From Rhodococcoides kyotonense (lineage in GTDB: Bacteria > Actinomycetota > Actinomycetes > Mycobacteriales > Mycobacteriaceae), in contig NZ_FZOW01000009.1 of NCBI RefSeq assembly GCF_900188125.1, forward strand, positions 186,001-250,000: a DNA stretch of 64,000 nucleotides, given 5' to 3'. The position numbers were made by a program, and so were the translations under genes. A model generated the notes under the pieces. That model did not search any database. It was not told the origin of the DNA and worked only from the letters and a program-made list of their open reading frames with translations. Shown here in pieces: positions 4,914 through 33,949 of this stretch. Position 1 is the stretch's first letter. Each line of letters starts with the position of its first letter.

Positions 4914-6086
4914 TCAGGAACGCGATTTCTTGGTGTAGGGCACGAAATCGAGACCGTAGCGCTCGCGCATGATGATGATCTTCTGGATCTGAGCCGTACC
5001 GTCGGCGATCTCGACGGACATCACGTCGCGGAGTCGTTGTTCGAACGGAAGTTCCTGCGAGTAGCCGTAATTGCCGTGCAGCAGGAGGCATTCCTTCACA
5101 GCGGCGCTGGCGACCAAGGGTCCGTACCACTTCGCCATCGCAGCCTCGGCCGTGTGAGGTAGGCCGCGGTTTCGCTTGTCCAGTGCGGAATAGCAGACGA
5201 GCCGAGCTGCCTCGAGTTTCGTGAGATGCTCGGCGAGCGGAAACGACACACCTTCGAATTTCGACAGCTGCGATCCGAATGCAGTGCGCGAGGCGACGTA
5301 TCGTGCCGTCTCGTCGATCGATGCCTGCGCCGCACCGATCCCGGTGAGAGCCAGCAACGGACGAGTGAAGTCAAAGCCGTTCAGCAATCGCGAGAACGCC
5401 TTTCCTTCGACGCCCAAAAGGTTCTCCGCAGGTATCTCGACACCGTCGAGGTGCAGCACTCCACGTCCCATGATGGCCCAGCCGGTGTCGGCGACAGTCG
5501 ACTTCACGGTTCCCGAGGCGTCGAGCGGAACGAGGAAGGTGGAGACCCCTACATCGACCCCGCCGCGAATCGTCCGGGCAGCGAGAAGGATCGACGACGC
5601 ATTGGCCAGAATCGTCACGGAGGTCTTCTCGCCCGTGATGACGTAACCACCGTCGACTGCACGCGCAGTGGTTCGGATGTTGGCCGCGTCCGATCCGGTC
5701 TCGGGTTCGGTCAGGCCGAAAGCAACGTAGGCGTCGCCCGATACCAGCTGCGGAATCCATTCTCGCTTGACCGTGTCGGTCGCGTGCTGCTGCAACAGCG
5801 AGCTCATCAGCAGTACAGGAATCGCCACGTTGGCCATGTTGAAGTCGGCGTACGCGAGCTCTTCGACGGCCTGCACCGCCGCGACGAAGTCTTCCTGATC
5901 GAGGGGGTTGTACTCGTCGCCGGCGAGGAGACCGTAGATCCCGAGTTCGGCGACGGCTCGGTGTAGGTCCCAGGGAAATGTCGACGATTTGGCTCGCTCG
6001 AGATACCCGGGTGCGAGCTTCTTCCGCGCGAAGTCGCGCACGGCGTCAGCGATGAGGCTCTGATCGGTGGTCTCGACAGTGGTCAT
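4914..6086 (-). CDS. Acyl-CoA dehydrogenase, cyclohexanecarboxyl-CoA dehydrogenase-like
   Basis: A 390-residue acyl-CoA dehydrogenase with FGLTEPETGSDAA as FAD/substrate motif, the GVEIPAENLLG mid-domain and LLHGNYGYSQELPFEQRLRD near the C-terminus. At the usual catalytic-base position the motif reads ADGTAQIQ, so Asp362 stands where most family members have Glu. Asp at this position is reported for some dehydrogenases of cyclic acyl-CoAs. With the SDR just upstream (12-base gap) and the divergent ligase at 7127, a role in oxidising a cyclic carboxyl-CoA is a reasonable inference. GGAG precedes the ATG at 6086. Confidence 0.8.
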   Translation of the reverse strand: MTTVETTDQSLIADAVRDFARKKLAPGYLERAKSSTFPWDLHRAVAELGIYGLLAGDEYNPLDQEDFVAAVQAVEELAYADFNMANVAIPVLLMSSLLQQHATDTVKREWIPQLVSGDAYVAFGLTEPETGSDAANIRTTARAVDGGYVITGEKTSVTILANASSILLAARTIRGGVDVGVSTFLVPLDASGTVKSTVADTGWAIMGRGVLHLDGVEIPAENLLGVEGKAFSRLLNGFDFTRPLLALTGIGAAQASIDETARYVASRTAFGSQLSKFEGVSFPLAEHLTKLEAARLVCYSALDKRNRGLPHTAEAAMAKWYGPLVASAAVKECLLLHGNYGYSQELPFEQRLRDVMSVEIADGTAQIQKIIIMRERYGLDFVPYTKKSRS

Positions 6087-6098
6087 GATTTCTCCAGC

Positions 6099-6890
6099 TC
6101 AGAACGCGGAGATTCCGCCGTTGACACTGATCGATTGGCCGGTCAGGCGAGCCGACGCCGGTCCACCGAGATACACGATGAGCGATGCCAAATCCTCGGG
6201 TTCTGCCACGCCCAGGTGCGCTTGAGCTGCAGCTTTATCGAACAACGACTTGCTGAATCCGTCACTGAGTACGTTGGCCGCAGTCGGAGTGCCCGCGATC
6301 AACGACGGCGTCACCACGTTGACGCGTACGCCGTTTCGCTTGCCCTCGATTGCGGCGACCCGTGAGAACATGACAATCGCGGCCATCGCCGCACCGAGTG
6401 CACTCTCACCCGGCGTCGGGACCTTGGCTGCATCCGATGCGATGTTGACGATGCTGCCGCCGCCCTGCTGCTGCATCATCGGAAGCACGGTTCGGGTCAA
6501 GAACATGGGCGGGAGCGCCTGACCGGTGAGGATCCCGGAGATGTCGTCGATAGCAGTTCGATGAAGCAGCTCCGGCCGATACGAGGTCGTCGTCGAGTTG
6601 ACCAGCACATCGATGGATCCCATTGCCCGCTGCGCCTCGTCGACCGCCCGCTCCACTCGACGTGCGTCACAGGCATCGGCGGCGATGAACTCGACCTTCG
6701 CATCGCCGCACCGGTCGAGAACCTTCTGACGAGCAGCGAGGCCCCGGTCTTCGTTTCGCCCGAGTAGCACAAGTCGTCGAACGCCTGCATCGACGAACGC
6801 CAAGGCCGAGGCCAGTCCGACGCCGGACGTACCCCCAGCGATGAGGACCGAGGAGTCCTCGTAGGTGCGGACCAGCGGAGATACGGACAT
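6099..6890 (-). CDS. SDR-fold protein lacking the catalytic Tyr-Lys pair
   Basis: A 263-residue short-chain dehydrogenase/reductase-fold protein. The cofactor loop IAGGTSGVGLASAL (residues 17-30), the D-A-C-D segment and a C-terminal LTGQSISVNGG end are normal, and Ser152 (VNIAS) is present. At the 13-residue spacing where the catalytic Tyr should be there is Leu165, and the Lys position is Met169 (ALGAAMAA), so the YxxxK motif is gone. It may be a non-oxidoreductase, for example a hydratase, isomerase or partner subunit, or it may use another acid. It is the first gene of a two-gene operon with the acyl-CoA dehydrogenase at 4914. AAAGG precedes the ATG. Confidence 0.8.
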   Translation of the reverse strand: MSVSPLVRTYEDSSVLIAGGTSGVGLASALAFVDAGVRRLVLLGRNEDRGLAARQKVLDRCGDAKVEFIAADACDARRVERAVDEAQRAMGSIDVLVNSTTTSYRPELLHRTAIDDISGILTGQALPPMFLTRTVLPMMQQQGGGSIVNIASDAAKVPTPGESALGAAMAAIVMFSRVAAIEGKRNGVRVNVVTPSLIAGTPTAANVLSDGFSKSLFDKAAAQAHLGVAEPEDLASLIVYLGGPASARLTGQSISVNGGISAF

Positions 6891-7126: not shown

Positions 7127-8755
7127 ATGCATCCAGAATTGTCACTTTGGCCGTCGACCCCCAGCACCGGAGTTCGCGACATCACCCTCGGTGGGCTGCT
7201 GCGCGAAGCTGCAAGCACGGTGCCGGACCGGGTAGCCCTCGTCGACGGTGTCCCCGAGGTCGACCAGCGCACCGAATGGACGTACCGAGAACTGTTGATC
7301 GAGGTCGAGTCCGTGGCGCGAGCGCTGCTCACCGTGTGCGAACCGGGCGACCGCATCGGGATCTGGGCCCCCAACAGCGGCGAATGGGTCATACTGCAGC
7401 AGGCGGTGGCAATGGCGGGCATGGTCGTCGTCGCTGCGAATCCCGCTTATCGTGCCCACGAACTCGAATATGTTCTGCGTCAGTCCGGTGCCGTCGCGCT
7501 GTTCTATCGCGACTCGTACCGCGGCACCGACCTCCGTCCGATCATCGACGAGATCCGCCCCAACCTTCCCGCGTTGCGCACGCTCGTCAGCACGGGCCAG
7601 TGGAAGTCCTTCGTCGACGCAGCAGACCACAGCAGGAAACTCCCCGATGTCGCATCGACGGATCCAGTGCAGATCCAATACACCTCGGGCACAACCGGTT
7701 TCCCCAAGGGTGCCCTGCTTCACCACAAAGGAATCATCAACGAAGCGACGTTCGTCTTCGAGCGTGCCGACATGCAGGACGGTGGAGTCTGCATCAATGC
7801 CATGCCGATGTATCACATCGGTGGTGGTGCTGTGACCGAGCTGGGGACGTTCTCCAAGCGCGGAACCTACGTCGTGCTACCAGGATTCGACGCAGGTCTG
7901 ACGCTCGAGATGTTCGAAACCTACAAGGGCACACACTCGTTGATGGTGCCCACCATGCTCATCGCACTGCTCGACCACCCCGATCTGAAGAGTCGGGACA
8001 TGTCCAGCCTGCGCACCGTGATGTCCGGCGCTGCAACGGTGCCCGAGAGTCTGATCCACCGTGTGATCGACCGATTCGACTGCCAGTTCACGATTCTGTT
8101 CGGTCAGACCGAGATGCACGGCGTGATCAGTCAGACGCGCGTCACCGACGACCCGTCGGATCAAGCGACGACTGTCGGCCAGCCATTGCCCGAACTCGAG
8201 GTGAAGATCGCCGACCCGCTGACCGGTGAGGTCGTGCCGATCGATGAGCAGGGCGAAATCTGTTGTCGCGGTTATCAGAACATGCTCGCGTACTACGAGA
8301 TGCCCGACGCCACCGCGGATACCATCGACGCCGACGGCTGGCTGCGCATGGGCGATCTCGGCACCATGGACTCCCGTGGATTCATCAAGGTCACCGGCCG
8401 GCTGAAGGACGTCATCATCCGCGGCGGTGCGAATCTGTACCCGCGGGAGATCGAAGAACTGCTGTTCCGGCATCCCGCGATCGCCGACGTCGTGGTCGTC
8501 GGCGTCCCCGACGAGAAATGGGGCGAGCAGGTCGGTGCGGTGATCCGGATGCACGCAGGTCATGATCGCCTCGAACCCGAAGTGCTCAAAGCGTGGTGCC
8601 GCGAACGTATCTCGGCGCACAAGACACCGTCGCAGTGGTACTTCACCGATGCGTTCCCGATGACTCCGAGCGGCAAGATCCAGAAGTTCAAACTGCGCGA
8701 TCAGATCGTCGCCGGTGAACTGACTTCCGCAGCCGAACGCGCAGACGTCAGTTGA
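7127..8755 (+). CDS. Acyl-CoA ligase (AMP-forming), cyclic/aromatic acid type
   Basis: A 542-residue member of the adenylate-forming superfamily. YTSGTTGFPKGALLHH (about residues 185-200) is the ATP phosphate-binding loop; GWLRMGDLGTMD and GRLKDVIIRGGANLYPREIE carry the hinge region; PSGKIQKFKLRDQ near the end holds the catalytic Lys of the thioester conformation. It would activate a carboxylic acid to its CoA thioester as the entry step. The ATG at 7127 is preceded by AAGGCAGGA. Neighbouring genes (cyclic-acyl dehydrogenase, SDR, flavin enzyme) suggest an alicyclic or aromatic acid; this is inference. Confidence 0.88.
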   Translation: MHPELSLWPSTPSTGVRDITLGGLLREAASTVPDRVALVDGVPEVDQRTEWTYRELLIEVESVARALLTVCEPGDRIGIWAPNSGEWVILQQAVAMAGMVVVAANPAYRAHELEYVLRQSGAVALFYRDSYRGTDLRPIIDEIRPNLPALRTLVSTGQWKSFVDAADHSRKLPDVASTDPVQIQYTSGTTGFPKGALLHHKGIINEATFVFERADMQDGGVCINAMPMYHIGGGAVTELGTFSKRGTYVVLPGFDAGLTLEMFETYKGTHSLMVPTMLIALLDHPDLKSRDMSSLRTVMSGAATVPESLIHRVIDRFDCQFTILFGQTEMHGVISQTRVTDDPSDQATTVGQPLPELEVKIADPLTGEVVPIDEQGEICCRGYQNMLAYYEMPDATADTIDADGWLRMGDLGTMDSRGFIKVTGRLKDVIIRGGANLYPREIEELLFRHPAIADVVVVGVPDEKWGEQVGAVIRMHAGHDRLEPEVLKAWCRERISAHKTPSQWYFTDAFPMTPSGKIQKFKLRDQIVAGELTSAAERADVS

Positions 8756-8811
8756 CACTGCACGACACCTACACGCTTCACACGTCATACATCGACCGCT
8801 ACGGAGTCTCT

Positions 8812-9864
8812 GTGAACCCCATCGTCAATCGCTACACCCGTCTCGTCGGAATCGACCACCCCATCGTGCAGGAGGGTCTCGGCCCCTTCCGTACACCGAA
8901 ACTCGCCGCAGCCGTATCCAACGCGGGAGGCCTAGGTACGGTGTCGATGCCAGGAATGCCCGCCGACATCGAGGCGGGCGCGCGCACCTTTCGTGAGCAC
9001 ATCGAAGAATGCGCTTCCCTGACCGACCGACATTTCGCCGTCAACATCCCGGTCGGTGTGGATGGTAACGGCGTCGTACTCCCGTTCACCGACGTCTACA
9101 TCCGTATGGTCCTCGACGCGCGGAGCGCAGATTCCGCTCTGGCGACACAGCTGACGGTCCTCACGACGTCGGCAGGCTTTCCCGGTGACTACATCGACAT
9201 GATCAGGGACGCCGGGATGATCCACCAGCACAAAGTCGGGTCGACGCGTCAGGCCGTGAAAGCTGCCGACGCCGGCGTCGACGTCGTCATCGCAGCAGGG
9301 TTCGAGATGGGCGGACACGCACCGAGCAAGGCAGTGCACTCGTACGTGCTGATTCCGAGCGTGACCGAAGCGGTCGACGTGCCGGTGCTCCTGACGGGCG
9401 GTGCGCGTGACGGCAGAAGCCTCGCGTCGGCTCTCGCCATGGGTGCCGACGGCGTCGCGATGGGCACGCGATTCATTGCGAGTACCGCGAATTCTGATTG
9501 GCATCCCGGCTACATCCAGGCCATTCTCGACGCCAATGAGGGTGACGACGTCGCATTCGACGGCGTGTACGGCCCGTGCCGCGGGCTTCGGAACACGGCG
9601 TCGATGAAGCTGACCGACCACCGGTCCACAGCGGGCGAGGTTCTCGACGCCGTCGAGCTGACTCGCTGGAAGATCGAATCGATGCAACGCGCTCAGACGC
9701 ACGGTGACGTCGAGGACGGGCTCGTTCTGACCGGGCAAGTGGCCTCGGCGATCCACGACGTGATCGACATCGCGGAATTCGTGCCTTCGATGGCGTCGGA
9801 GGCGGCCGATATCCTCCGTGGTCTCACGGCGTCGCTTCCGGAACCCTCTCCGGTGCTGCTCTGA
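8812..9864 (+). CDS. Nitronate monooxygenase-family flavoprotein
   Basis: A 350-residue TIM-barrel FMN protein of the nitronate monooxygenase/2-nitropropane dioxygenase family. The N-terminal IVQEGLGPFRTPKLAAAVSN, the GFEMGGHAP segment and LLTGGARDGRSLASALAMGA with MGTRF form the FMN site. In actinobacterial CoA pathways relatives act not on nitroalkanes but as CoA-linked flavin reductases or oxygenases (IpdC of steroid ring degradation is one); that role fits this context but is inferred. The GTG at 8812 is chosen because GGAG lies 7 bases upstream. It follows the ligase after 56 bases and is probably cotranscribed. Confidence 0.8.
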   Translation: MNPIVNRYTRLVGIDHPIVQEGLGPFRTPKLAAAVSNAGGLGTVSMPGMPADIEAGARTFREHIEECASLTDRHFAVNIPVGVDGNGVVLPFTDVYIRMVLDARSADSALATQLTVLTTSAGFPGDYIDMIRDAGMIHQHKVGSTRQAVKAADAGVDVVIAAGFEMGGHAPSKAVHSYVLIPSVTEAVDVPVLLTGGARDGRSLASALAMGADGVAMGTRFIASTANSDWHPGYIQAILDANEGDDVAFDGVYGPCRGLRNTASMKLTDHRSTAGEVLDAVELTRWKIESMQRAQTHGDVEDGLVLTGQVASAIHDVIDIAEFVPSMASEAADILRGLTASLPEPSPVLL

Positions 9865-9905
9865 TGCAGTGCTGAGTGCAGTGTCCGTGCTGGCTCGCAG
9901 ATAGC

Positions 9906-10754
9906 ATGTCGCCCGTGACGGATTCCTTATCGAAAGAGGTGTCGAGGCCGACTGCGGGTAGTAGCGCTCGGTCTGCGCTCATCTCCATCCTCGGCGAGTT
10001 CGTCAACCCGTATCGTCGGCCGGTACGTACTTCCGCGCTGCTGTATGCGCTCGCACGCCTCGGTTACGGAGAACCCGCGAGTCGCCAGGCCATTGCACGC
10101 GCGGGCGCATCAGGGCTGATCACGGCAGAGAAGGACGGCCGCGAGACCAAGTGGAGCTTGACCGAGCTGGGTCATCGACTGTTCGTCGAGGGCACGAACC
10201 GGGTGTTTCCCGACGCATCGCGGTCCGGTCGTTGGGACGGCCGATGGCTCGTCGTCATCGCTCCTGTGCCGGAGTCCCATCGGGCTGTGCGTAAGAAGCT
10301 CTACGCCGCGTTCCGTTGGGCAGGCTTCGGCAATCCGAGTCCAGGCGTCTGGGTCACCCCTCATGTCGACAGGCTGCCGGAGGCGACCGACGTCATCGAC
10401 TCGCTCGGGCTGTCGCCGAATACCGTCTCGTTCGTCGGTTCGCCCGCGGCTGCAGGCATATCGGAGAACGAACTGGTCCAGCGCTCGTGGGATCTGGAGA
10501 AGATCGCCGACACGTACGACGAGCTGCTGAACCGCTTCGAGGACAAGCGAGGTCTGTCGGGTGAGGCTGCGCTGGTCGCGCACCTCGAGTTGGTCGACGC
10601 ACTCCGGCAGACGCCGTATATGGACCCGCACCTTCCTGACGCACTGCTTCCGGAGTGGTCGGGCTTGGGCGCGGTGAAGCGTCTGCAGGATCTTCGCACC
10701 GAATGGGCGCCGGCAGCTCACGCGCATTGGCTGTCCGTAGCGCGTCTGGACTAG
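9906..10754 (+). CDS. PaaX-family transcriptional regulator
   Basis: About 282 residues with the PaaX layout: an N-terminal winged-helix region (SALISILGEFV, then LARLGYGEPASRQAIARAGA), a middle domain beginning GRWDGRWLVVIAPVPESHRA, and a C-terminal PaaX domain containing RSWDLEKIADTYDELLNRFE. PaaX proteins repress aromatic-acid genes and release DNA on binding an aryl-CoA. This gene sits directly upstream of the dehydratase/reductase operon, and an inverted repeat lies between them, so local control is likely. Start choice is uncertain: ATG at 9906 or GTG at 9915, neither with a strong ribosome-binding site. Confidence 0.85.
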   Translation: MSPVTDSLSKEVSRPTAGSSARSALISILGEFVNPYRRPVRTSALLYALARLGYGEPASRQAIARAGASGLITAEKDGRETKWSLTELGHRLFVEGTNRVFPDASRSGRWDGRWLVVIAPVPESHRAVRKKLYAAFRWAGFGNPSPGVWVTPHVDRLPEATDVIDSLGLSPNTVSFVGSPAAAGISENELVQRSWDLEKIADTYDELLNRFEDKRGLSGEAALVAHLELVDALRQTPYMDPHLPDALLPEWSGLGAVKRLQDLRTEWAPAAHAHWLSVARLD

Positions 10755-10802
10755 GCAACATCCTCTGCAGAGTCCTGGCATAGCTGTATTCAGATTTCGT
10801 TC

Positions 10803-10835
10803 TACATTTATGGACAGATCAGCTCAGTAAATGTA
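10803..10835. promoter_or_regulatory. Inverted repeat TACATTTA-N17-TAAATGTA, putative PaaX-type operator
   Basis: Two perfect 8-base arms separated by 17 bases, in the only non-coding gap (137 bases) between the PaaX-type gene and the dehydratase/reductase operon. The local sequence is unusually AT-rich for this genome. Position and symmetry fit an operator overlapping the operon promoter. I found no second copy in the window. Confidence 0.5.
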
Positions 10836-10891
10836 TCGTTCTAGACAGCGCCGGTGAGGTGCGTTCCACGCCAGGAAGTCGAAGGACAACA

Positions 10892-12064
10892 GTGAGCGAA
10901 CTCCACGCACCCTCGTTGGCGACGCTACGAGAAGTCGCCGACGATCCCGTCTCGTATGCACAGCAATGGAAGCAGACTCACGAACGCCCGGTGGTCGGCT
11001 CGTTCCCCATGAACTTCCCGTCCGAGATCGTGCATGCCGCTGGGGCATTGCCGGTCATCGTGCAGGAGAGCAAGACGCCGATCACCGAGGGGCGCAGCAT
11101 GCTCGCCGAGTTCTATTGCGGCTACACCCGGAGCGTCGCCGATCAGGCAGCCATCGGCGAACTCGATGTGTTCGACGCCTTCGTCGCGGCCGACCACTGC
11201 GTCCAGCTGCTCGGCGCGGTCGACGCCATCAGATACACGCGCCCCGAAAAGCCGGTTCACTTCGCCCAATTCACGAGCGCGATGGACGATACGTGGTCGA
11301 AACCTCGGGTGGACAACCGAATCGAAGACCTCAGGGGCGACATCGAAGGCGTCACGGGCATCGTCGTCACGCCGGAACGGCTGTCCCACAGCATCCGGGC
11401 CTTCAACGTGAACAGACGACTGTTGCGCACGTTCTACGACCTGCGCCGATCGGGACGTGCGCGAATCACTGCGAGTGAGATGCAGTTGCTCGTCAAATCG
11501 TCGATGGTGATGGACATCGAGGAACACACGGCAGTACTACAGACATTGTCGAACCACTTGCCGATACGCGACCACGCGCCTGACGATCTCGTTCGACTAC
11601 ATCTTTCAGGGCACTTCTGTCACGCTCCCAAGCCTGAGATCCTCGACGTCATAGAGGAATCCGGTGGACTCGTCGTCGACGACGATCTGTACACGGGCTT
11701 TCGTTACATCTCGACCGACGTTCCCGAGATCGGGGATCCATTCGAAGCGTTGTCGACGTGGTACATGCAACGAAACATCAACGCTCCGTGTCCCACTCGT
11801 GTGACCAGCAAGGTCGACTGGGACACCTACCTGCTCGACTCCCTGTCGGTCAGTAGGTCCGTCGGTGTAGTCGTGCTGATGGCGAAGTTCTGCGAACCTC
11901 ACATGCTGTACTACCCGGAGCTGCGAAAAGCGCTCGAACAGAACGGCATTCCGTCGCTGCTCATCGAGACGGAGCACGAAGGCATTCCGGTGGAGACGCT
12001 CCGCACCAAGATGGAGACCTTCGTCGAACGCATCCGCCGTCAGGGCGCACCTGTTCCGGCTTGA
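10892..12064 (+). CDS. 2-Hydroxyacyl-CoA dehydratase / class I benzoyl-CoA reductase-type subunit (HgdB/BcrC-like)
   Basis: A 390-residue member of the HgdB/BcrC family. Recognisable blocks are SFPMNFPSEIVHAAGALPV near residue 40, where the family begins its first Rossmann-like domain, DDLYTGFRY near 265, and the family-defining C-terminal block AKFCEPHMLYYPELRKAL followed by IPSLLIETEHE (332-363). Cys76, Cys103 and Cys334 fall where family members bind a [4Fe-4S] cluster. Such subunits receive a low-potential electron from an ATPase activator to eliminate water from a 2-hydroxyacyl-CoA or reduce an aromatic ring. The GTG start has AAGGA at the right distance. First gene of a four-gene operon. 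The exact reaction cannot be decided from sequence. Confidence 0.88.
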   Translation: MSELHAPSLATLREVADDPVSYAQQWKQTHERPVVGSFPMNFPSEIVHAAGALPVIVQESKTPITEGRSMLAEFYCGYTRSVADQAAIGELDVFDAFVAADHCVQLLGAVDAIRYTRPEKPVHFAQFTSAMDDTWSKPRVDNRIEDLRGDIEGVTGIVVTPERLSHSIRAFNVNRRLLRTFYDLRRSGRARITASEMQLLVKSSMVMDIEEHTAVLQTLSNHLPIRDHAPDDLVRLHLSGHFCHAPKPEILDVIEESGGLVVDDDLYTGFRYISTDVPEIGDPFEALSTWYMQRNINAPCPTRVTSKVDWDTYLLDSLSVSRSVGVVVLMAKFCEPHMLYYPELRKALEQNGIPSLLIETEHEGIPVETLRTKMETFVERIRRQGAPVPA

Positions 12065-12092
12065 CCCGACACCATTGTTCGAAGGAGTTCGA

Positions 12093-13433
12093 ATGTCGAT
12101 CGCTATACCCCAGAAGGACAAGACGAATCGTCTGTCCAGCACCCGACTCGGTGGGAAGATGACCGCCGACTACTGGAACAATATCTTCACCGCGAAAGAA
12201 CGTGGAAAGCACGTCGTCTGGTACAACGGCTCGGCGCTCAATCCGATTTTCCAAGCTGCAGGTCTGGAGTGGTGTCACGGTGAGGCATTCGCCGCCCGGC
12301 TCGCTGCGCAGCACCTCGAAGAGCCAGCTCAGGCTGCAGGTGCCGAGTACGGCTACATCGGCGAACTCTGTTCGTACGCAAGGACTCACCTCGGGTGCGC
12401 GGTGCTGACGCAGAAGAATGTCAACGAACGCGAAAGCGGTGTCGTCGGCATGCTCGATCAGCAGGAATTGGCTGCAAAGCTGCCTGCGCCCGACTTCTTC
12501 GTCAACGGCTACTCCGGATGCAGCACCGGTCAGCAGTGGGACGCGATGACGTACCGCGTGTTCGATCGTAAGCTTCCGATCTTCAACGTCTCGATCCCGA
12601 TGCTGTGGGGCAACAAGCCCGATGCTGGGTACATGCGCGGCGAGGAATGGGCAGAGGTCGGCGACTACGTCGAGGGCCAGCTCCGCGAACTGATCGTGTT
12701 TCTCGAACACCAGACCGGCCGGCCGTTCGACTGGGACAAGTTGAGCGAGAGCATGTCCTACATCAAACGAGCATCAGAGCTCCGGCTCGAAGCGATGGAA
12801 CTGTGCACGCTTGCACCGACTCCCGCGACGTACTGGGACTGGGTTGCCAGCATCGCACCGATCAATTTCCTTCCCGGAAACCAAGCTCTCGTCGACTACT
12901 TCGCCGGCATGAAGGCCGAAATCCAACAACGGATCGTCGACGGTGTCTCCGCGGTCGAGAACGAACGCTACCGAGTGTATTTCGACGGCATCATGAACTG
13001 GAACAAGCTCGGCTTCCTGACGCGTAAGTTCGCCGAGTACGACGTCGCTGTCATCGCGGGCCGCTATACGCACGAATCCTTCTGGCAGGAACCGCAACTT
13101 GTCGACATCGACAACCCCTTGCGCGGGATGGGGCAGCACTATCTATTGTGCCCACTGAACCATGGTCTGAAGAACCTGCAAGAGTTGCTGATTCGTCGAC
13201 TCGATCAGTACTCGATCGACGGTATCGCATTCCACTCCACCCGTACCTGCCGCGCCATGACGAATCCGCAGTCCATGCTCGCGAAGGCCGCCGAGCGGGA
13301 GCGGGGCGTCAAGTCGTTCTTCTTCGAGGGTGATGTCGCAGATGCGTCGTTCTACAACGACGAACTCTTCGATAGTCGTCTCGAAGCCATGTTGGAAGCC
13401 ATCGACGTGCAGAGAATGAAGACGTTGATCTGA
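12093..13433 (+). CDS. 2-Hydroxyacyl-CoA dehydratase / class I benzoyl-CoA reductase-type subunit (HgdA/BcrB-like)
   Basis: A 446-residue partner subunit. Its layout matches the BcrB/BadE and HgdA families: GELCSYARTHLG (Cys93), NGYSGCSTGQQW (Cys143), a central ERYRVYFDGIMNWNKLGF block near 291-308, LLCPLNHG (Cys353), and STRTCRAMTNPQ (Cys386). The end reads FFFEGDVADASF then RLEAMLEAIDVQR, the typical C-terminus of these subunits. The four cysteines sit at the positions where family members hold the active-site cluster. AAGGAG precedes the ATG. It follows the first subunit after 28 bases and touches the activator gene, as expected for a heterodimeric catalytic component. Conservation of the motifs argues for a working enzyme rather than a relic. 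Confidence 0.88.
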   Translation: MSIAIPQKDKTNRLSSTRLGGKMTADYWNNIFTAKERGKHVVWYNGSALNPIFQAAGLEWCHGEAFAARLAAQHLEEPAQAAGAEYGYIGELCSYARTHLGCAVLTQKNVNERESGVVGMLDQQELAAKLPAPDFFVNGYSGCSTGQQWDAMTYRVFDRKLPIFNVSIPMLWGNKPDAGYMRGEEWAEVGDYVEGQLRELIVFLEHQTGRPFDWDKLSESMSYIKRASELRLEAMELCTLAPTPATYWDWVASIAPINFLPGNQALVDYFAGMKAEIQQRIVDGVSAVENERYRVYFDGIMNWNKLGFLTRKFAEYDVAVIAGRYTHESFWQEPQLVDIDNPLRGMGQHYLLCPLNHGLKNLQELLIRRLDQYSIDGIAFHSTRTCRAMTNPQSMLAKAAERERGVKSFFFEGDVADASFYNDELFDSRLEAMLEAIDVQRMKTLI

Positions 13434-14362
13434 TGAACTGGTACGTGATGGGCGTCGATCTCGGATCGACGACGGCCAAGGCAACCGTCGTCGATTATTC
13501 CGGGGCGCTGGTCGGATCTAGCGTCGTTCAGATGGGAGCGGTCAGTCGTGACGCCGTCCGGCGAGCGATGGACGCTGCACTGACTGCGGCCGGCGTCGAG
13601 CAGACGGATATTCGACGCACCATCAGTACCGGCTACGGTCGCAAGCTCGTGCCGGGCGCCGACCGCTCGTTCACCGAGATCACTTGCCACGCACGGGGTG
13701 CGGCGGCGCTGCACCCGGGAGTTCGCCTGGTCATCGACATCGGTGGACAGGACAGCAAGGTCATCGCCGTCGACTCCGACGGTCTCGTCGACCGGTTCGC
13801 GATGAACGACCGATGCGCCAGCGGGACAGGCCGTTTCTTCGACGTCCTAGCCCGCGCTCTGGAAGTCGACGTCAGCGAGGTGGGTGATCTGGCTCTCGCC
13901 GGAGCCGACGGCTTGGAGGTCAGCAGCATGTGCGCCACGTTCGCCGAAACCGAGGTCATCTCGCTGCTCGCCCAAGGACAGGAGAAGGCCGATGTCGCTG
14001 CGTCGGTCCACAAGGCTGTCGCTGTACGCACTCTCGGCCTCGTCGCGCAGGTCGGCAAGGCGACCCCGACAGTCATGACCGGTGGGGTCGCACGGAATCC
14101 CGCCGCCCGTCACTACGTCGAGAAGGCCTTGCGGCATCCCATCGAGCTGCTCGATCAACCGCAGATAGCCGGCGCATACGGAGCCGGGCTGCTCGCCCGT
14201 GACGAGTACGCAGGTTCGATCGCCGCGACGGAGACACGAGACGTAGCCGCCAAGAATCAGCTGGTCGACCGGGCCGCGGGCATCGTCCCCCAGTGCACGG
14301 GATGTGACGGGATGGCAGGTGACCACTCGCACACGACGATCCCGCTGACGGTGCGCTCGTGA
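13433..14362 (+). CDS. ATPase activator of dehydratase/benzoyl-CoA reductase (BadF/BadG/BcrA/BcrD, HgdC family)
   Basis: A 309-residue ASKHA-fold ATPase. GVDLGSTTAKATVVD (7-21) is the phosphate-1 loop, VIDIGGQDSKVI (100-111) the phosphate-2 loop, and MTGGVARNPAARHYVEKAL the adenosine region. Cys128 (NDRCASGTGRF) and Cys167 (SSMCATFAETEV) are the two ligands per monomer of the [4Fe-4S] cluster that bridges the homodimer. It hydrolyses ATP to lower the potential of an electron and passes it to the catalytic subunits. One activator gene implies an HgdC-like homodimer rather than the BcrAD heterodimer. The last 30 residues are extra relative to HgdC and contain CTGC plus DHSH. Its start overlaps the previous stop by one base. 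Confidence 0.92.
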   Translation: MNWYVMGVDLGSTTAKATVVDYSGALVGSSVVQMGAVSRDAVRRAMDAALTAAGVEQTDIRRTISTGYGRKLVPGADRSFTEITCHARGAAALHPGVRLVIDIGGQDSKVIAVDSDGLVDRFAMNDRCASGTGRFFDVLARALEVDVSEVGDLALAGADGLEVSSMCATFAETEVISLLAQGQEKADVAASVHKAVAVRTLGLVAQVGKATPTVMTGGVARNPAARHYVEKALRHPIELLDQPQIAGAYGAGLLARDEYAGSIAATETRDVAAKNQLVDRAAGIVPQCTGCDGMAGDHSHTTIPLTVRS

Positions 14363-14820
14363 GCGGGATCGTGAACTCGACGGTGTTCGTGGTCGATGAT
14401 CATCTGGGCGTAGGACTCGAGATCGCTCACGAGCTCGTTCGCGTCGGAGTGCAGCGGATCGGGTTCGTCAGCCGGGATGCCGGGGCAGGCGACGCTGCCG
14501 CGACCGAGATCTTTCGATCTGCGTCGGGGGTCTGGGCACTGTCGGCATCAGGCGATCCGGATTCTCCGGCCGAAGCCCGCCGGATGGTGGCCGAATTGTC
14601 GGCGTCCCTGGGTGAACCGGACGTACTCGTCGAGGTATCCGACGCACCCACTGCTGTGCGCGCCGAATTACTGCAGGCGATGCGCTCGATCGGGCAGGGC
14701 ATCGTGGTCGACGTGGGTTCGAACGACGAACACGGTTCCTCCTCAGGTGGCGTCGCCATGTATTCGGTCAATGGCGCCGCCGACGCCGCGAAGGTCGTCG
14801 TCGCCCGACTCCGATCCTGA
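14359..14820 (+). CDS. Short SDR-like protein encoded with the dehydratase/reductase operon
   Basis: A 153-residue protein with an N-terminal Rossmann-like stretch: TVFVVDDHLGVGLEIAHELV then IGFVSRD, resembling the first half of an SDR. The glycine-rich loop is degenerate (DDHLGVG in place of TGGxxGxG) and there is no catalytic Tyr-Lys pair. The middle is Ala/Ser-rich and the end AADAAKVVVARL is helical. The GTG start overlaps the activator stop (GTGA), so it is translationally coupled to that operon. Function is unknown; a dedicated accessory or structural subunit of the ATP-dependent system is one possibility, a truncated SDR another. It overlaps the convergent ligase gene by 78 bases. Confidence 0.6.
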   Translation: MSGIVNSTVFVVDDHLGVGLEIAHELVRVGVQRIGFVSRDAGAGDAAATEIFRSASGVWALSASGDPDSPAEARRMVAELSASLGEPDVLVEVSDAPTAVRAELLQAMRSIGQGIVVDVGSNDEHGSSSGGVAMYSVNGAADAAKVVVARLRS

Positions 14821-16500
14821 CTTGCCGGCGTTACCCGCCCCACTCAGTCGTTGACGAAGCTTGTACTTGAGGATCTTCCCGCCGACCGTCTCGGGCATGG
14901 CGTCGACGACCACGATCTGCTTCGGTGCCTCGTAGCTGGCAAGACGCTCACGTGCGTATGCGATCAGTGACGCCGCGTCTGGGATCACTCCCGCCTTCAC
15001 CGTGACGACTCCGGTCACCCGTTCGCCCCACTTGTCGTCCGGAAGTCCGATGACTGCCGCCCGGACGACGTCGGGGTGAGCGGCCAGTACACCCTCGACG
15101 CGCAGGCTCGACACGTTCTCTCCACCGGACTTCACGATGTCCTTGAACCTGTCGACCATGATCTGTAGGCCGTCGTCGTCGTACATGCAGCTGTCCCCGC
15201 TATGAAACCACCCATCGCGGAACGCTTCTCGGGTGGACTCCTCGTCGCGGTAGTACCCTGCGGTGATCACCGGACTTCGATACACGGCCTCGCCGGGAAC
15301 ACTCGCCTTCCCGCGCAGACTCACTCCATCGATGTCGACGATGTCGGCGCCCAACATCGGGTTGGGAACTCCCACGTAGTTGACCCCGTCGAACGTCTGC
15401 GCGAACTTGCTCGGATGCATCTCCGGCCAGAATCTGAAACACGACATCGACTCGGTCTGGCCGAACACCTCGAGCAGCGCCACCTGCGTGCCACAAGCTC
15501 GGCGCAGATCGTTCTCCATGGTCGGATTCATCGCTCCCCACGAGAACATCGCCACCGTCAGCGTGCTCAGGTCGAGATTCGTCGGGTCGTCCAGAGCCGC
15601 GTCTGCCAGCGCTTGTACCCAGGCCGGCGAGCCCGCCCACACGGCAGTGACCCCGTGCTCCGTGATCGCATCGGCGAGCCCCCGCGGGTCGGGGCGCCGT
15701 CCCAGCACCATCGTCCCGCCCGACAGCAACGCTGGAAGCAGCGTCGAATTGTGTCCGCAGTGAAAGACGATCGGGAGAAACGTGCACATGACGAAATTCG
15801 TCTCGAACTTCAGCCCGCGAGTCAACGACATCGCGTACGAGAATCCCGCCATGTACGAATACGTATGAGAGGTCATCGACGCTTTGGGCATCGCGGTGGT
15901 GCCCGAGGTGAACAGCAGACTCCAGATGTCGTCGGCGTGTACCTCGATCTCGGGCGGCTCGACCGAATACCGAGAGATCCACGCGTCGAATGTATCCACT
16001 CCACCGAGTCCCTGACCGCCGACCGGAATCACTACGCCGATTCCTACGCCCGCCTCGTCGAGATCGCCGTTCACTCGTTCGATGTACTCGCCGTCGACCA
16101 CGGCGAACGCCACGTCCACGTGGCCGATGACCCACCGAAGTACATCGGGGGCAAGCAATGGATTGACCGGTACGGCAACCATTCCCGCTTTGGCAACCCC
16201 GAACATCAGAACGATGGCCTCGATGGAATTGTCGCAATACAGCAGCACTCGATCGCCGGGATTCAGTCCGCGATCCAGTAGCGCGTGCGCCACCTGATTG
16301 GCGGCTTCGTCGGCCTCGCGATAGGTCATCCTCCGAAATCGTGCAGAAGCACATGCCCCCTCTCGTGCAACGAGAGCGAGTTTGTCCGGCGCGCTACTGC
16401 GCACCCGTTCGAGAATGTCTCCTACGGCCAGCCGATTCCACCGCCGATCGGCTCGGCGTCCGCGCAGCGTGGTCACGTCGAAACTGTCCTGCTGGGTCAT
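14743..16500 (-). CDS. Acyl-CoA ligase (AMP-forming)
   Basis: A 585-residue adenylate-forming enzyme. LLFTSGTTAMPKASMTSHTY is the ATP-binding loop, GWFHSGDSCMYDDDGLQIM and DRFKDIVKSGGENVSSLRVE form the hinge, and VGGKILKYKLRQRL carries the C-terminal catalytic Lys. It would make the CoA ester of an acid substrate. After the Lys motif there is a Gly/Ser/Asp-rich tail of about 40 residues that overlaps the end of the opposite-strand gene at 14359. The ATG at 16500 is preferred; an upstream in-frame ATG would add 24 atypical residues. It shares the 268-base region 16501-16768 with the divergent operon starting at 16769. Confidence 0.87.
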   Translation of the reverse strand: MTQQDSFDVTTLRGRRADRRWNRLAVGDILERVRSSAPDKLALVAREGACASARFRRMTYREADEAANQVAHALLDRGLNPGDRVLLYCDNSIEAIVLMFGVAKAGMVAVPVNPLLAPDVLRWVIGHVDVAFAVVDGEYIERVNGDLDEAGVGIGVVIPVGGQGLGGVDTFDAWISRYSVEPPEIEVHADDIWSLLFTSGTTAMPKASMTSHTYSYMAGFSYAMSLTRGLKFETNFVMCTFLPIVFHCGHNSTLLPALLSGGTMVLGRRPDPRGLADAITEHGVTAVWAGSPAWVQALADAALDDPTNLDLSTLTVAMFSWGAMNPTMENDLRRACGTQVALLEVFGQTESMSCFRFWPEMHPSKFAQTFDGVNYVGVPNPMLGADIVDIDGVSLRGKASVPGEAVYRSPVITAGYYRDEESTREAFRDGWFHSGDSCMYDDDGLQIMVDRFKDIVKSGGENVSSLRVEGVLAAHPDVVRAAVIGLPDDKWGERVTGVVTVKAGVIPDAASLIAYARERLASYEAPKQIVVVDAMPETVGGKILKYKLRQRLSGAGNAGKSGSESGDDDLRGVGGAIDRIHGDAT

Positions 16501-16649
16501 CGATCCTCCGAATATGCTGTGCCGTATGGAAATACGAGGCGGCGGGATGCCGGTCGGTTCGCTGCGCACCATAGACGGTGAACGTCCGAGATGTCAGGCG
16601 GCATCTGTCGACGCACTGTCGAAAGCTCCATCTCGAATCGGGTCTTGAA

Positions 16650-17665: not shown

Positions 17666-18802
17666 ATGCGTTTCACCGATGAACAACAGCACTTCGCACG
17701 CGCAGTGCGTGACCTCTGCGACGCCGAATGCGGGACTCTTTCGAAACGAGATGTGCTCACCGAGAACGGAACTGTGGCCAACAGTCCCGAGATCCTCGCG
17801 AAGATGGCAAAACTCGGATGGCTGGGGGTTTCCTTGCCCGAGCAATACGGCGGAGGCGGCGCCGGCATGGTCGACGAGTGCATCTTCCTCGAGGAGACAT
17901 CGCGCGGCCTCGCACCGATCATCGGGTACTCGACAGGCCTCACCGCGGTGCAGACCTATCTCCGATACGGCACCGAGGAACAGAAGAAATCGGTCGTCAC
18001 CAACATGGCGTCCGGCAAACTCGAAGCCATCGCACTGAGCGAGCCCGGCGCAGGGTCCGACCTCGGCGGCGTACGCATCAAAGCCGAACGCGTCGGTGAC
18101 CACTACATCGTCAACGGACAGAAGACCTGGATCTCGGCCGCGCATGTCGCCGAGAACATCCTCCTCCTCGTCCGTGAAGATTCGAGCGGTCCGAAGCATC
18201 AGGGACTCACGCTGCTGATGGTGCCGACCGACACTCCAGGCCTCACCATGCACGAGGTGAAGACCATGGAGGCGCGCACGTGCAACGACCTGTATTTCAC
18301 CGACGCACAGATCCCCGTATCCGCGGTCGTGGGTCAACCGGGGCAGGCGTGGAAGCACCTCATGCGTGGGCTCAGTGTCGAACGCCTGATCATCGCGACG
18401 ATGTCGATGGGCGCCGCCCAACGGTCGCTCGACGACGCCATCGCCTTCGTCAAGGACCGCGAGCAGTTCGGACGTAGCATCAGTTCGTTCCAAGCCATCC
18501 GACACCGCATCGCAGATCTGGCCACCGAGATCGACTACTGCCGCACCTTTGTCTACTCCGTCGCCGAACGAATCGATGCAGGCGAGGAGGATTCGCTCAA
18601 CCGCCAGGGTTCCATGGCGAAGCTCAAGTGCACCGAGATCGCCAAGAAAAGTGCGCTGGAAGCGATGCAGATGATGGGCGGTTACGGGTACGCGCGCGAG
18701 TACGGAATGGAAGAGCAGGTTCGACGCTCGCTCGCCCCTCCGATCTATGGCGGTACCAACGAGATTCAGCGCGACATCATCTCGAAGAGTCTGGGCCTGT
18801 AG
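17666..18802 (+). CDS. Acyl-CoA dehydrogenase
   Basis: A 378-residue acyl-CoA dehydrogenase. IALSEPGAGSDLGGVR (122-137) and WISAAH are the FAD/substrate segments, REQFGRSISSFQAIRHRIAD is a typical helix, and MQMMGGYGYAREYGMEEQVR near the end is conserved. At the C-terminal base position the sequence is IYGGTNEIQR, with Gly instead of Glu. Instead Glu239 in LSVERLIIA occupies the helix-G position used as base by isovaleryl- and long-chain-type enzymes. It should therefore be active on branched or longer acyl-CoAs; specificity is inferred. GAGGAG precedes the ATG. Confidence 0.87.
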   Translation: MRFTDEQQHFARAVRDLCDAECGTLSKRDVLTENGTVANSPEILAKMAKLGWLGVSLPEQYGGGGAGMVDECIFLEETSRGLAPIIGYSTGLTAVQTYLRYGTEEQKKSVVTNMASGKLEAIALSEPGAGSDLGGVRIKAERVGDHYIVNGQKTWISAAHVAENILLLVREDSSGPKHQGLTLLMVPTDTPGLTMHEVKTMEARTCNDLYFTDAQIPVSAVVGQPGQAWKHLMRGLSVERLIIATMSMGAAQRSLDDAIAFVKDREQFGRSISSFQAIRHRIADLATEIDYCRTFVYSVAERIDAGEEDSLNRQGSMAKLKCTEIAKKSALEAMQMMGGYGYAREYGMEEQVRRSLAPPIYGGTNEIQRDIISKSLGL

Positions 18803-25636: not shown

Positions 25637-26482
25637 TTACGGCCGCCTCGGAAACTTCTCGAATTCCGGACGCCGCTTTTCCTTGTACGCCTCACGGCCC
25701 TCCTTCGCCTCGTCGGTGGAGTAGAACAAGAGATTCGCATCGTGGGCCAGCTGCTGAATCCCGGAAAGCCCATCCTCTGCGGCGTTGAAGCTGGCCTTCA
25801 TCAGGCGAAGCGCGAAGGGCGAGAGTTGCAGCATCTCGCGGCACCACTGCACTGTCTCAGCCTCGAGATCCGCAAGTGGCACGACAGTGTTGACCAGGCC
25901 CATCTCGCGGGCCTCATCAGCGTTGTATTGACGACACAGGAACCAAATCTCCTTCGCCTTCTTGACCCCCACAAGTTCTGCGAGAAGCCCCGCGCCGAAA
26001 CCGCCGTCGAACGAACCGACCTTGGGTCCGACCTGACCGAAGCGTGCATTGTCGGCCGCGATGGACAGATCGCACACCAGGTGCAGAATGTGCCCACCAC
26101 CGATGGCGTATCCCGCCACCATCGCAACGACAGGCTTCGGCAGACGCCTGATCTGAATTTGCAGGTCCGTCACGTGGAAGCGTCCGACGCTCCCCTTCTT
26201 ACCCGGCTCGGTCAGGTACCCGGTGTCACCACGGACGCGTTGGTCACCACCCGAACAGAAGGCATCCGGTCCTTCGCCGGTCAGCACTATGACGCCGATC
26301 GACGGGTCCTCACGCGCTTCGACGAGAGCATCGGATATCTCCATCAACGTCTGCGGGCGAAACGCATTGCGGACCTCGGGTCTACAGATGGTGACCTTGG
26401 CAATTCCGTCACCGCTGTGCTCGTACCGAATGTCCTCGTATTCACCGAGGCTCGTCCACTGAACCGATTGTGTTGCCGTCAT
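25637..26482 (-). CDS. MenB-type crotonase (DHNA-CoA synthase fold; BadI-like hydrolase or MenB paralogue)
   Basis: A 281-residue protein with almost textbook MenB features: [65 protein letters not shown] with Ser157 and Asp159, [15 protein letters not shown], and the C-terminal [14 protein letters not shown]. MenB forms 1,4-dihydroxynaphthoyl-CoA in menaquinone synthesis; BadI is the closest catabolic relative and opens a ring. No menaquinone genes are nearby and it sits between catabolic operons under a TetR-type box, so a ring-cleaving role is plausible, but a housekeeping MenB cannot be excluded. It appears to be a single-gene unit. Confidence 0.8.
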
Positions 26483-29584: not shown

Positions 29585-29586
29585 CG

Positions 29587-32692: not shown

Positions 32693-32739
32693 AGCAATCG
32701 TCCTGTCTCCATGAAGAATGTTTGGACTTAACGTACTAA

Positions 32740-32750
32740 AGGACAGACCA
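32740..32750. promoter_or_regulatory. Weak GntR-type box between two dehydrogenase genes
   Basis: On the minus strand the sequence is TGGTCTGTCCT, one good half-site (TGGTC) with an imperfect second half. It sits in the 70-base AT-rich gap upstream of the dehydrogenase starting at 32692, so an internal promoter is possible. Confidence 0.35.
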
Positions 32751-32762
32751 AAAAGTCAACGA

Positions 32763-33839: not shown

Positions 33840-33914
33840 GCGCCTGCTCCTAATTTTCGAGACAGCGATTACTCTGCACATGTCACAGTGCAGGCATGAT
33901 GTTAATGTTATATT

Positions 33915-33930
33915 AGGTCTGACCGTTAGA
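33915..33930. promoter_or_regulatory. GntR box at the regulator's own divergent promoter
   Basis: AGGTCTGACCG contains the perfect palindrome GGTC-T-GACC and is followed directly by GTTAGACCAG, a second half-site. It lies between the operon starting at 33839 and the GntR gene at 33950, so the regulator probably controls both. Confidence 0.6.
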
Positions 33931-33949
33931 CCAGCGATGGGGGAATCCT

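What the first reader, a model, noticed from the sequence alone, without database searches (positions are those of the whole stretch)
10892..14820. ATP-dependent dehydratase / class I benzoyl-CoA reductase-like operon in an aerobic-type actinobacterium
Two HgdA/BcrB- and HgdB/BcrC-type subunits with conserved cluster cysteines (Cys93, 143, 353, 386 and Cys76, 103, 334) are encoded with an activator that keeps both Fe-S ligands and both phosphate loops. Known systems of this kind are extremely oxygen-sensitive and occur in anaerobes, yet everything around it is aerobic-style CoA beta-oxidation under a PaaX-type regulator. With one activator gene it resembles 2-hydroxyglutaryl-CoA dehydratase in stoichiometry, while the 446-residue subunit resembles BcrB. 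It could reduce or dehydrate a cyclic or aryl acyl-CoA under micro-oxic conditions, or be an oxygen-tolerant variant. No dedicated ferredoxin is seen in the operon.
Basis: partly seen in the sequence, partly recalled or inferred. Interest (0 to 1): 0.88.

Follow-up and report, generated by a model that had tools for sequence, protein, structure and literature searches.

The report
Aerobic branch of anaerobic radical enzymes
A Rhodococcus-like bacterium carries two copies of a radical enzyme system of a kind known from anaerobes, and its relatives in other air-breathing bacteria form a deep branch of their own with its own conserved extra parts, which raises the question of how such oxygen-sensitive chemistry works in air.

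Summary
Window 10892-14362 encodes both catalytic subunits and the ATPase activator of the benzoyl-CoA reductase / 2-hydroxyacyl-CoA dehydratase (BCR/HAD) family, with all known Fe-S ligands; a second full set lies 29 kb upstream. The proteins group neither with HAD nor with class I BCR. With relatives from Rhodococcus, Gordonia, Nocardia, Paracoccus, Novosphingobium and others they form a deep third clade (SH-aLRT 100; joining it to either known group rejected at p about 0.02). The clade has its own invariant active-site motifs, an activator tail with a cysteine pair (54 of 57) and a constant partner, an SDR-fold protein whose catalytic Tyr and Lys are replaced. Among 397 genomes of the order, the 7 where this partner was found are exactly the 7 with the enzyme. 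Some genomes have one activator gene for three catalytic pairs, the double-cubane site is absent and the alpha subunit models closest to HadB, which favours HAD-like electron recycling; but two loci carry a dedicated 2-oxoacid:ferredoxin oxidoreductase and ferredoxin, which would fit Birch-type reduction. Neighbours (CYP108N-type P450, BadI/MenB-like hydrolases, HMG-CoA lyase) point to catabolism of cyclic, probably p-menthane-type, acids. Substrate, reaction and oxygen tolerance are unproven.

The parts
10892..12064 (+). beta (HgdB/HadC/BzdN-like) subunit, GTG start; predicted cluster ligands Cys76, Cys103, Cys334; extra invariant Cys300
   Evidence: PF06050 207.6 bits; ligand columns 69 of 69 in the thinned clade set; PDB profile hits HadC, BzdN, MbdN
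12093..13433 (+). alpha (HgdA/HadB/BzdO-like) active-site subunit; ligands Cys93, Cys143, Cys386; conserved Glu64, Tyr95, Tyr325; clade motifs HGEA, CS[TS]GQQW, DG.MNWN
13433..14362 (+). activase (archerase ATPase), ligands Cys128 and Cys167, plus C-terminal tail with CxxC
   Evidence: TIGR00241 228.4 bits; tail counts
14359..14820 (+). 153-aa N-terminal remnant of the partner SDR family (full length at this position in R. opacus)
6099..6890 (-). full-length rewired SDR partner: canonical catalytic Tyr and Lys replaced; invariant ASDA, TPGE and Met169
4914..6086 (-). acyl-CoA dehydrogenase next to the partner SDR
   Evidence: PF00441, PF02771
6974..8755 (+). acyl-CoA ligase (FadD type; exact start not determined), recurrent neighbour
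   Evidence: PF00501; same cluster in 49 of 74 loci
8752..9864 (+). FMN protein of the nitronate monooxygenase / FabK type
   Evidence: PF03060 143.5 bits; TIGR03151 176.9, below its cut-off
9906..10754 (+). PaaX-family regulator
   Evidence: three PaaX domains above cut-off
10803..10835 (.). perfect inverted repeat TACATTTA-17-TAAATGTA upstream of the operon, candidate operator
14743..16572 (-). second acyl-CoA ligase
   Evidence: PF00501 221.7 bits
16769..17572 (+). MenB/BadI-like crotonase, candidate ring-opening 2-oxocycloalkyl-CoA hydrolase
   Evidence: 335.6 bits to PRK07396 (cut-off 380), 326.2 to BadI (cut-off 467.6)
17666..18802 (+). acyl-CoA dehydrogenase
   Evidence: PF00441
18747..19730 (+). 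SDR closest to 2,4-dienoyl-CoA reductase (below its cut-off; ORF start probably too far upstream)
   Evidence: NF005811 227 of 318 bits
20855..23756 (-). two enoyl-CoA hydratase-like genes and a family III (CaiB/BaiF) CoA-transferase
25637..26482 (-). MenB-type gene above the MenB cut-off
   Evidence: PRK07396 464.7 bits (cut-off 380)
27385..28314 (-). HMG-CoA lyase
   Evidence: NF004283 318.9 bits (cut-off 246)
28346..34729 (.). CoA-transferase, thiolase, SDR, two acyl-CoA dehydrogenases (- strand) and GntR/FCD regulator (+ strand): lower beta-oxidation block, same families in the same order on R. ruber plasmid pmega_1

Best explanation
The operon encodes an ATP-primed ketyl-radical enzyme of a third clade of the BCR/HAD superfamily found in Actinomycetota and Pseudomonadota known mostly as aerobes. 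Proposed working: the acid is made into a CoA thioester by the neighbouring FadD; the activase, reduced by a ferredoxin or flavodoxin, hydrolyses ATP and injects one electron into the beta-subunit cluster; it passes to the three-Cys [4Fe-4S]-water cluster of the alpha subunit, which reduces the thioester carbonyl; a substituent is expelled and the electron is recycled (HAD-like, redox-neutral). The unsaturated cyclic acyl-CoA is then handled by the rewired SDR partner and channelled into MenB/BadI-like ring opening and beta-oxidation ending at HMG-CoA lyase. The likely substrates are carboxylated p-menthane-type or similar alicyclic acids. Shown here: the gene set, ligand conservation, third-clade phylogeny, partner concordance, one activase gene beside several pairs in some genomes. 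Inferred: reaction, substrate, direction, electron donor, any oxygen protection by the activase tail.
For: Third clade: concatenated tree SH-aLRT 100, next to HAD plus MBD/BCR; AU p 0.017 and 0.021 against joining HAD or BCR+MBD. Cluster ligands conserved 46 of 46 alpha and 69 of 69 beta rows; double-cubane ligands BzdN Cys36 and Cys263 absent in 69 of 69. HAD-like features: alpha model nearest HadB by VIA-align; beta keeps Cys at BzdN293 as HadC does; one activase gene above cut-off beside six HGD-D genes in five genomes (G436, G437, G438, G444, G447); 4Fe ferredoxin genes in only 3 of 76 named-genome loci; no 2-oxoacid:ferredoxin oxidoreductase above cut-off in 4 of 8 genomes including the host; family III CoA-transferase in 25 of 74 loci, as in HAD operons (recalled). 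Pathway: partner SDR found in exactly the 7 of 397 genomes with the enzyme; CYP108N-type P450 in 5 of those 7 and in 8 of 397 in all; BadI/MenB-like genes and HMG-CoA lyase; substrates of CYP108N12/N14 from PMC11279926 (passages).
Against: No 2-hydroxyacyl substrate is evident in the proposed pathway. Two Saccharopolyspora loci (L080, L082) carry a 2-oxoacid:ferredoxin oxidoreductase (alpha 652.3 and 645.6 bits, cut-off 482.75) and an FdxA ferredoxin just upstream of the pair, a dedicated electron supply that suits stoichiometric reduction; a third locus (L106) has the ferredoxin alone. In the five genomes with two Cys-bearing pairs each among G000, G430, G434, G435 and G440 there are two activases, one per pair, so sharing is not general, and the completeness of the five sharing genomes is not told. 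MBD- and BCR-type reductases also lack the double cubane and His131. TIGR02263 (BcrC) scores the beta subunit slightly above HadC (156.9 against 151.3 bits, both far under cut-off); BCR shares Asn-Trp at BzdO 276-277 with this clade; Foldseek E-values tie BzdO and HadB. The P450 lies beside the paralogous set in the host, not the window set. AU p values are modest, long rows are in the tree, and the groups were named after seeing it.
Confidence: 0.47

Rival explanations
1. Birch-type aryl-CoA reductase: the pair dearomatises an aryl-CoA (for example cuminoyl-CoA from p-cymene after CYP108N, alcohol and aldehyde dehydrogenases and FadD) with stoichiometric ATP, and the rewired SDR reduces the diene with NAD(P)H so that it cannot re-aromatise in air; BadK/H/I-like steps then open the ring.
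For: CYP108N-type P450 association (CYP108N12 acts on p-cymene, limonene and p-xylene, PMC11279926 passages); P450, ferredoxin reductase, Zn-ADH, PaaX, CoA-transferase, HgdBA, activase, SDR and FadD in one stretch in R. opacus and R. jostii; BadI-like genes; 2-oxoacid:ferredoxin oxidoreductase and ferredoxin upstream of the pair in two Saccharopolyspora loci, as I recall for anaerobic bcr clusters; parallel with R. palustris BadDEFG feeding BadKHI (PMC9795900 passages); an SDR without Tyr/Lys suits C=C rather than C=O reduction (inference).
Against: One activase type, and one gene beside three pairs in five genomes, while class I BCRs have two ATPase subunits; 4Fe ferredoxin genes in 3 of 76 loci and no 2-oxoacid:ferredoxin oxidoreductase above cut-off in the host; alpha closest to HadB by VIA-align; aerobes normally attack such acids with dioxygenases (recalled).
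Confidence: 0.3
2. Other radical chemistry on a CoA thioester in the same clade, such as vinylogous C-O elimination, ether cleavage or reductive dehydroxylation of a terpenoid acyl-CoA, with several paralogues for several substrates.
For: Active-site signature unlike both HAD and BCR; up to three paralogous pairs per genome, in the host with separate ligases and PaaX regulators; tertiary-alcohol terpenoids are CYP108N14 substrates.
Against: No direct evidence; rests on the lack of a fit to the known reactions.
Confidence: 0.13
3. Ordinary HAD or BCR taken up from an anaerobe and used only under anoxia.
For: Some hosts outside Actinomycetota belong to genera with denitrifiers (Azoarcus, Paracoccus, Rhodoferax; recalled), and one of eight actinobacterial genomes (G110) has narG above cut-off; patchy occurrence, 7 of 397 genomes of the order.
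Against: Deep clade with members in two phyla; AU rejection of both placements; no narG above cut-off in 7 of 8 genomes including the host; oxygenase genes in several neighbourhoods.
Confidence: 0.08
4. Non-functional or non-redox relic.
For: The partner SDR copy in the operon is truncated in the window.
Against: All ligands invariant; alpha 90% and beta 82% identical to the congener G016; a full-length partner SDR stands at 6099-6890; cluster-less homologues are a separate clade.
Confidence: 0.02

Closest known systems
(R)-2-hydroxyisocaproyl-CoA dehydratase HadBC with activator HadI (PDB 3o3m, 4eht), HAD family
   Different: Separate clade with a stem of 2.2 changes per column; active-site segments HGEA and CS[TS]GQQW in place of PEN and CNQVIKW; activase tail; rewired SDR partner; hosts known mostly as aerobes
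Class I benzoyl-CoA reductase, BZD type (BzdNO, 8s02), MBD type (MbdNO, 9g87) and BCR type (TIGR02260 genes)
   Different: No double-cubane ligands (against BZD), one activase instead of two ATPase subunits, outside the BCR+MBD clade
Double-cubane cluster protein DCCP (6eno)
   Different: Two different subunits; four of the six double-cubane cysteine positions only
bad-ali / chcpca clusters for cyclohexane carboxylate in aerobic Rhodococcus (PMC9795900, PMC5906575)
   Same: BadI annotated as naphthoate synthase, CoA ligase, acyl-CoA dehydrogenase, SDR
   Different: The words dehydratase, reductase and benzoyl-CoA do not occur in the main text of PMC5906575; the passages of PMC9795900 that I saw place BadDEFG in R. 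palustris only

Membership tests
BCR/HAD superfamily | Two HGD-D subunits with three Cys cluster ligands each, and a BadF-type ATPase | tested here: met
HAD (2-hydroxyacyl-CoA dehydratase) | Groups with HadBC/HgdAB in the family tree | tested here: not met
   Third clade; AU p 0.017 against AEROBIC+HAD (modest, groups named after the tree)
HAD (2-hydroxyacyl-CoA dehydratase) | One activase type, needed catalytically | tested here: inconclusive
   One activase gene per set; one gene beside three pairs in five genomes, but one per pair in others; catalytic use not testable here
HAD (2-hydroxyacyl-CoA dehydratase) | Dehydrates a 2-hydroxyacyl-CoA | not testable with these tools
   needs biochemistry
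HAD models NF052455/NF052456 | Score above the curated cut-off | tested here: not met
   139.2 of 750 and 151.3 of 700 bits
Class I benzoyl-CoA reductase | Score above TIGR02260/02263/03190/03191 cut-offs | tested here: not met
   85.1 of 486.55, 156.9 of 421.15, 109 of 453.8, 63 of 448.6 bits
Class I benzoyl-CoA reductase | Groups with BCR/MBD in the family tree | tested here: not met
   AU p 0.021 against AEROBIC+BCR+MBD (modest)
Class I benzoyl-CoA reductase | Two different ATPase subunits | tested here: not met
   single activase gene in each of the two sets of the host
Class I BCR, BZD type | [8Fe-9S] ligands Cys36/73/100/263/293/327 | tested here: not met
   Cys36 and Cys263 replaced in 69 of 69 rows
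Class I benzoyl-CoA reductase | Reduces aryl-CoA with stoichiometric ATP | not testable with these tools
   needs biochemistry
Classical SDR dehydrogenase (for the partner protein) | Ser-Tyr-Lys catalytic triad | tested here: not met
   Lys position is Met169 in 54 of 54 aligned rows; Tyr position is Ile, Leu or Ala in the rows printed

The most novel reading that the evidence does not exclude
A Birch-type or new ketyl-radical CoA enzyme that runs in aerobic terpene catabolism: an oxygen-adapted archerase with a dithiol tail primes a third-clade BCR/HAD enzyme, and an obligate, catalytically rewired SDR traps the labile product, so that aerobes dearomatise or dehydroxylate cyclic acyl-CoAs without an oxygenase at that step.
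Probability: 0.3. Interest if true: 0.92.

Novelty: new variant of a known kind. Interest (0 to 1): 0.74.

Why it matters
BCR and HAD enzymes are textbook oxygen-sensitive radical enzymes of anaerobes. A deep, two-phylum clade of them in bacteria known mostly as aerobes, with its own conserved activator tail and a constant rewired SDR partner, would offer a system in which oxygen protection of archerase chemistry can be tested. It may also add a radical step to aerobic terpenoid and naphthenic-acid breakdown and an enzyme that can be handled more easily for enzymatic Birch-type or dehydration chemistry. Eight searches of the open-access paper library aimed at it listed no paper whose title or shown abstract start describes it; I judged by those listings.

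Tried and rejected
Double-cubane cluster in the window beta subunit: rejected, two of six ligand positions replaced in 69 of 69 rows. Special likeness to BcrB: not borne out by VIA-align or the tree; Foldseek E-values alone do not separate HadB and BzdO. Membership of the cluster-less actinobacterial HGD-D pairs: rejected. A 4Fe ferredoxin gene by the window set: none found. First AlphaFold job with 5 sequences was poor (pLDDT 61.6); the second with 56 sequences was used. Heterodimer modelling, docking and cofactor placement could not be run. NCBIfam at E 1e-20 gave no name for the AlkB-like and a membrane protein of the gammaproteobacterial loci; PDB search gave alkane monooxygenase for the first. 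Papers: PMC11971306 outline with abstract, passages and sections 8, 9 and 12; PMC11574389 passages and section 6; PMC11279926, PMC11889516, PMC9795900 and PMC5906575 passages only; other papers of the searches as listings only; the CYP108N12 and CYP108N14 original papers were not seen.

Rows dropped before counts and limits: trees used sets thinned at 85% (beta) and 88% (alpha) identity, 94 beta and 73 alpha rows before the PDB chains; residue counts left out the cluster-less rows. The structure alignment used 55 of 61 length-filtered relatives (76 proteins in the cluster) plus the window; alignment A4 used 45 of 66 length-filtered beta relatives (81 in the cluster) plus the window. Two of the 57 activases had no tail residues in view; no shuffled control was made for the tail cysteines. 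Genome searches scored only the best first-look candidates (6 per genome for the SDR, 4 for the P450), with thresholds E 1e-50 and E 1e-100; the P450 limit of 60% identity was set after seeing a gap between 61% and 43%. Of five CxxCxxCxxxCP matches in the 76 loci I took two Cys-rich ones (L085, L115) for chance. Gene counts per locus rest on my own crude gene caller; by it HgdA directly follows HgdB in 60 of 81 cases and the activase follows in 32.
Full report
What is there. The window is a stretch (C17:186001-250000) of a 6.3-Mb genome given as 100% complete. By rpoB the host is nearest to its congener G016 (92.4% nucleotide identity) and, among the named genomes compared, to Rhodococcus (R. 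jostii 89.4%, R. opacus 89.3%, R. ruber 86.5%; Gordonia polyisoprenivorans 83.9%, Nocardia nova 84.0%). On the + strand, 6974-14820 reads FadD, NMO/FabK-like FMN protein, PaaX, HgdB-like, HgdA-like, activase and an SDR remnant. A second complete set, with its own PaaX, FadD, SDR and MFS transporter, lies 29 kb upstream on the same contig, and a P450, a ferredoxin reductase and a 2Fe-2S ferredoxin stand beside it. The whole genome holds four HGD-D genes and two activases.

Cofactors. In BzdNO the active-site cluster is held by Cys95/128/380 and the double cubane by Cys36/73/100/263/293/327 (PMC11971306, passages and section 8). HAD subunits hold their clusters by three Cys each (PMC11574389, section 6). 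Aligned to these, the window clade keeps all three alpha ligands in 46 of 46 thinned rows and the three beta ligands in 69 of 69; Cys36 and Cys263 of BzdN are replaced in 69 of 69, while Cys293 is kept in 69 of 69. Glu65, Tyr97 and Tyr298 of BzdO are kept in 46 of 46, and His131 is Gly in 46 of 46. The MBD and BCR rows also lack His131 and the double cubane, so these residues alone do not separate dehydratase from reductase. The activase ligands are kept in 57 of 57.

Who has it. A scan of one genome per species found 97 stretches encoding a relative, of which 76 loci were kept, under 64 different record titles cut to 60 letters: 42 Actinomycetota and 33 Pseudomonadota by title, plus one Rhodococcus MAG whose name the taxonomy parser misread. 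The scan patterns came from this clade, so they favour it. Rhodococcus, Gordonia and Nocardia are obligate aerobes (recalled); Paracoccus, Azoarcus and Rhodoferax include denitrifiers (recalled). In the genus of the host only 1 of 36 other genomes has the pair. In the order 25 of 397 genomes match HGD-D, but only 7 with the Cys-bearing type; the other 18 hold far, cluster-less homologues. Of 8 genomes tested for narG, one (G110, not the host) is above cut-off.

Three constants of the clade. (a) Activase tail: 54 of 57 activases have a C-terminal extension with two Cys spaced by two to four residues; of the three exceptions two have no tail residues in view. The five solved activases that match are 243-276 residues long, and in the three alignments shown the fold ends within 17 residues of the chain end. 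(b) Partner SDR: 51 of 74 loci carry an SDR-fold protein near the enzyme. In 54 aligned rows the segment that should hold the catalytic Tyr and Lys reads ASDA..K..TPGE....G..M (one row lacks that Lys); the catalytic Lys position is Met in 54 of 54 and the Tyr position is Ile, Leu or Ala (register from the PDB alignments). Searching 397 genomes of the order with this protein at E 1e-50 returns exactly the 7 genomes with the Cys-bearing enzyme (chance 3e-15 ignoring kinship; six candidates scored per genome). In the window the copy behind the activase is cut to 153 aa, and a full-length member stands at 6099-6890. (c) Activase sharing: five pseudomonadotal genomes with six HGD-D genes have one activase above cut-off, and two with four have one (G441, G445); but G000, G430, G434, G435 and G440, with two Cys-bearing pairs each, have two.

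Electron supply. 4Fe ferredoxin genes stand in 3 of 76 loci. Two of these, both Saccharopolyspora (L080, L082), also carry a 2-oxoacid:ferredoxin oxidoreductase upstream of the pair on the same strand (alpha 645.6 and 652.3 bits, cut-off 482.75; beta 248 bits, under its 261.9 cut-off). No relative of these genes was found in the other 74 loci or the host stretches searched, apart from the L106 ferredoxin. Of 8 genomes, 4 have the alpha subunit above cut-off and 4, the host among them, do not. The dedicated supply in Saccharopolyspora is the strongest hint in my data that some members may need electrons in stoichiometric amounts.

Pathway. P450s at 60% identity or more to the CYP108N-like P450 (best PDB relatives P450tol and P450terp) occur in 8 of 397 genomes, 5 of them among the 7 with the enzyme (p 1.4e-8, genus level 4e-6). 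CYP108N12 and N14 oxidise the ring methyl of p-cymene and limonene, N14 also of terpineols (PMC11279926, passages); that the host P450 belongs to this subfamily is my recall. In R. opacus and R. jostii the P450, ferredoxin reductase, Zn-ADH, PaaX, CoA-transferase, HgdBA, activase, SDR and FadD stand together; six of 74 loci, among them Nevskia and Solimonas, have an AlkB-like oxygenase instead. The window continues with MenB/BadI-like genes, enoyl-CoA hydratases, a 2,4-dienoyl-CoA-reductase-like SDR, acyl-CoA dehydrogenases, thiolase, CoA-transferase and HMG-CoA lyase; the lower block has the same order on an R. ruber megaplasmid that also carries the enzyme. BadI-type ring opening for cyclohexane carboxylate in aerobic Rhodococcus has been proposed (PMC9795900, PMC5906575, passages). 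I infer catabolism of cyclic, probably p-menthane-type, acids.

Reaction. For redox-neutral, HAD-like use: one activase gene beside several pairs in some genomes, no double cubane, HadB-like fold, few ferredoxin genes nearby, no 2-oxoacid:ferredoxin oxidoreductase above cut-off in the host, and a CaiB/BaiF CoA-transferase near the enzyme in 25 of 74 loci. For reduction: the ring-opening context, the aromatic substrate p-cymene of the P450 family, the Saccharopolyspora electron-supply genes, and a partner SDR whose lost Tyr/Lys suits C=C chemistry. I put HAD-like at 0.47 and Birch-type at 0.30. Neither can be settled from sequence.

Verdict. Public annotation already names the genes '2-hydroxyacyl-CoA dehydratase family protein', but none of eight aimed paper searches listed an account of the clade (open-access library only, judged by titles and shown abstract starts).

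Noticed in passing
L009, L010, L024-L039 (loci of the genome search): A far clade of HGD-D pairs in 18 of 397 genomes of the order has lost the cluster ligands: none of 18 alpha subunits has Cys at any of the three positions. Function unknown; looks like a non-redox offshoot of the family.
   Followed up: partly
L080 3501-8441, L082 3878-8567: In two Saccharopolyspora genomes a 2-oxoacid:ferredoxin oxidoreductase and an FdxA ferredoxin stand directly upstream of the enzyme set: a possible dedicated electron supply in an aerobe.
   Followed up: partly
L106 14855-16176: FdxA-type ferredoxin followed by a thioredoxin-reductase-like flavoprotein near the enzyme in Amycolatopsis acididurans: another possible electron donor pair.
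   Followed up: no
L145 (Rhizobium leguminosarum plasmid NZ_CP030763.1): HGD-D pair with two activase genes, a bile acid:sodium symporter and rhodaneses, far from HAD and BCR in the tree; looks like another unstudied system.
   Followed up: no
window 10803-10835: Perfect inverted repeat TACATTTA-17-TAAATGTA in the PaaX-hgdB gap; the pattern occurs once in the window and otherwise only in two fetched loci that cover the same place. Candidate operator.
   Followed up: partly
window 14359-14820: The partner SDR gene behind the activase is truncated in the host; the matching frames in G016 and some Gordonia are also short, while R. opacus has it full length.
   Followed up: partly
window 25637-26482: A MenB-type gene above the MenB cut-off in a catabolic island; automatic annotation as menaquinone synthesis may be wrong there.
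   Followed up: no
L122 (Azoarcus sp. KH32C plasmid pAZKH): A deep-branching member of the clade lies near DUF1302, DUF1329 and MMPL genes, an arrangement I recall from sterol or terpenoid islands.
   Followed up: no
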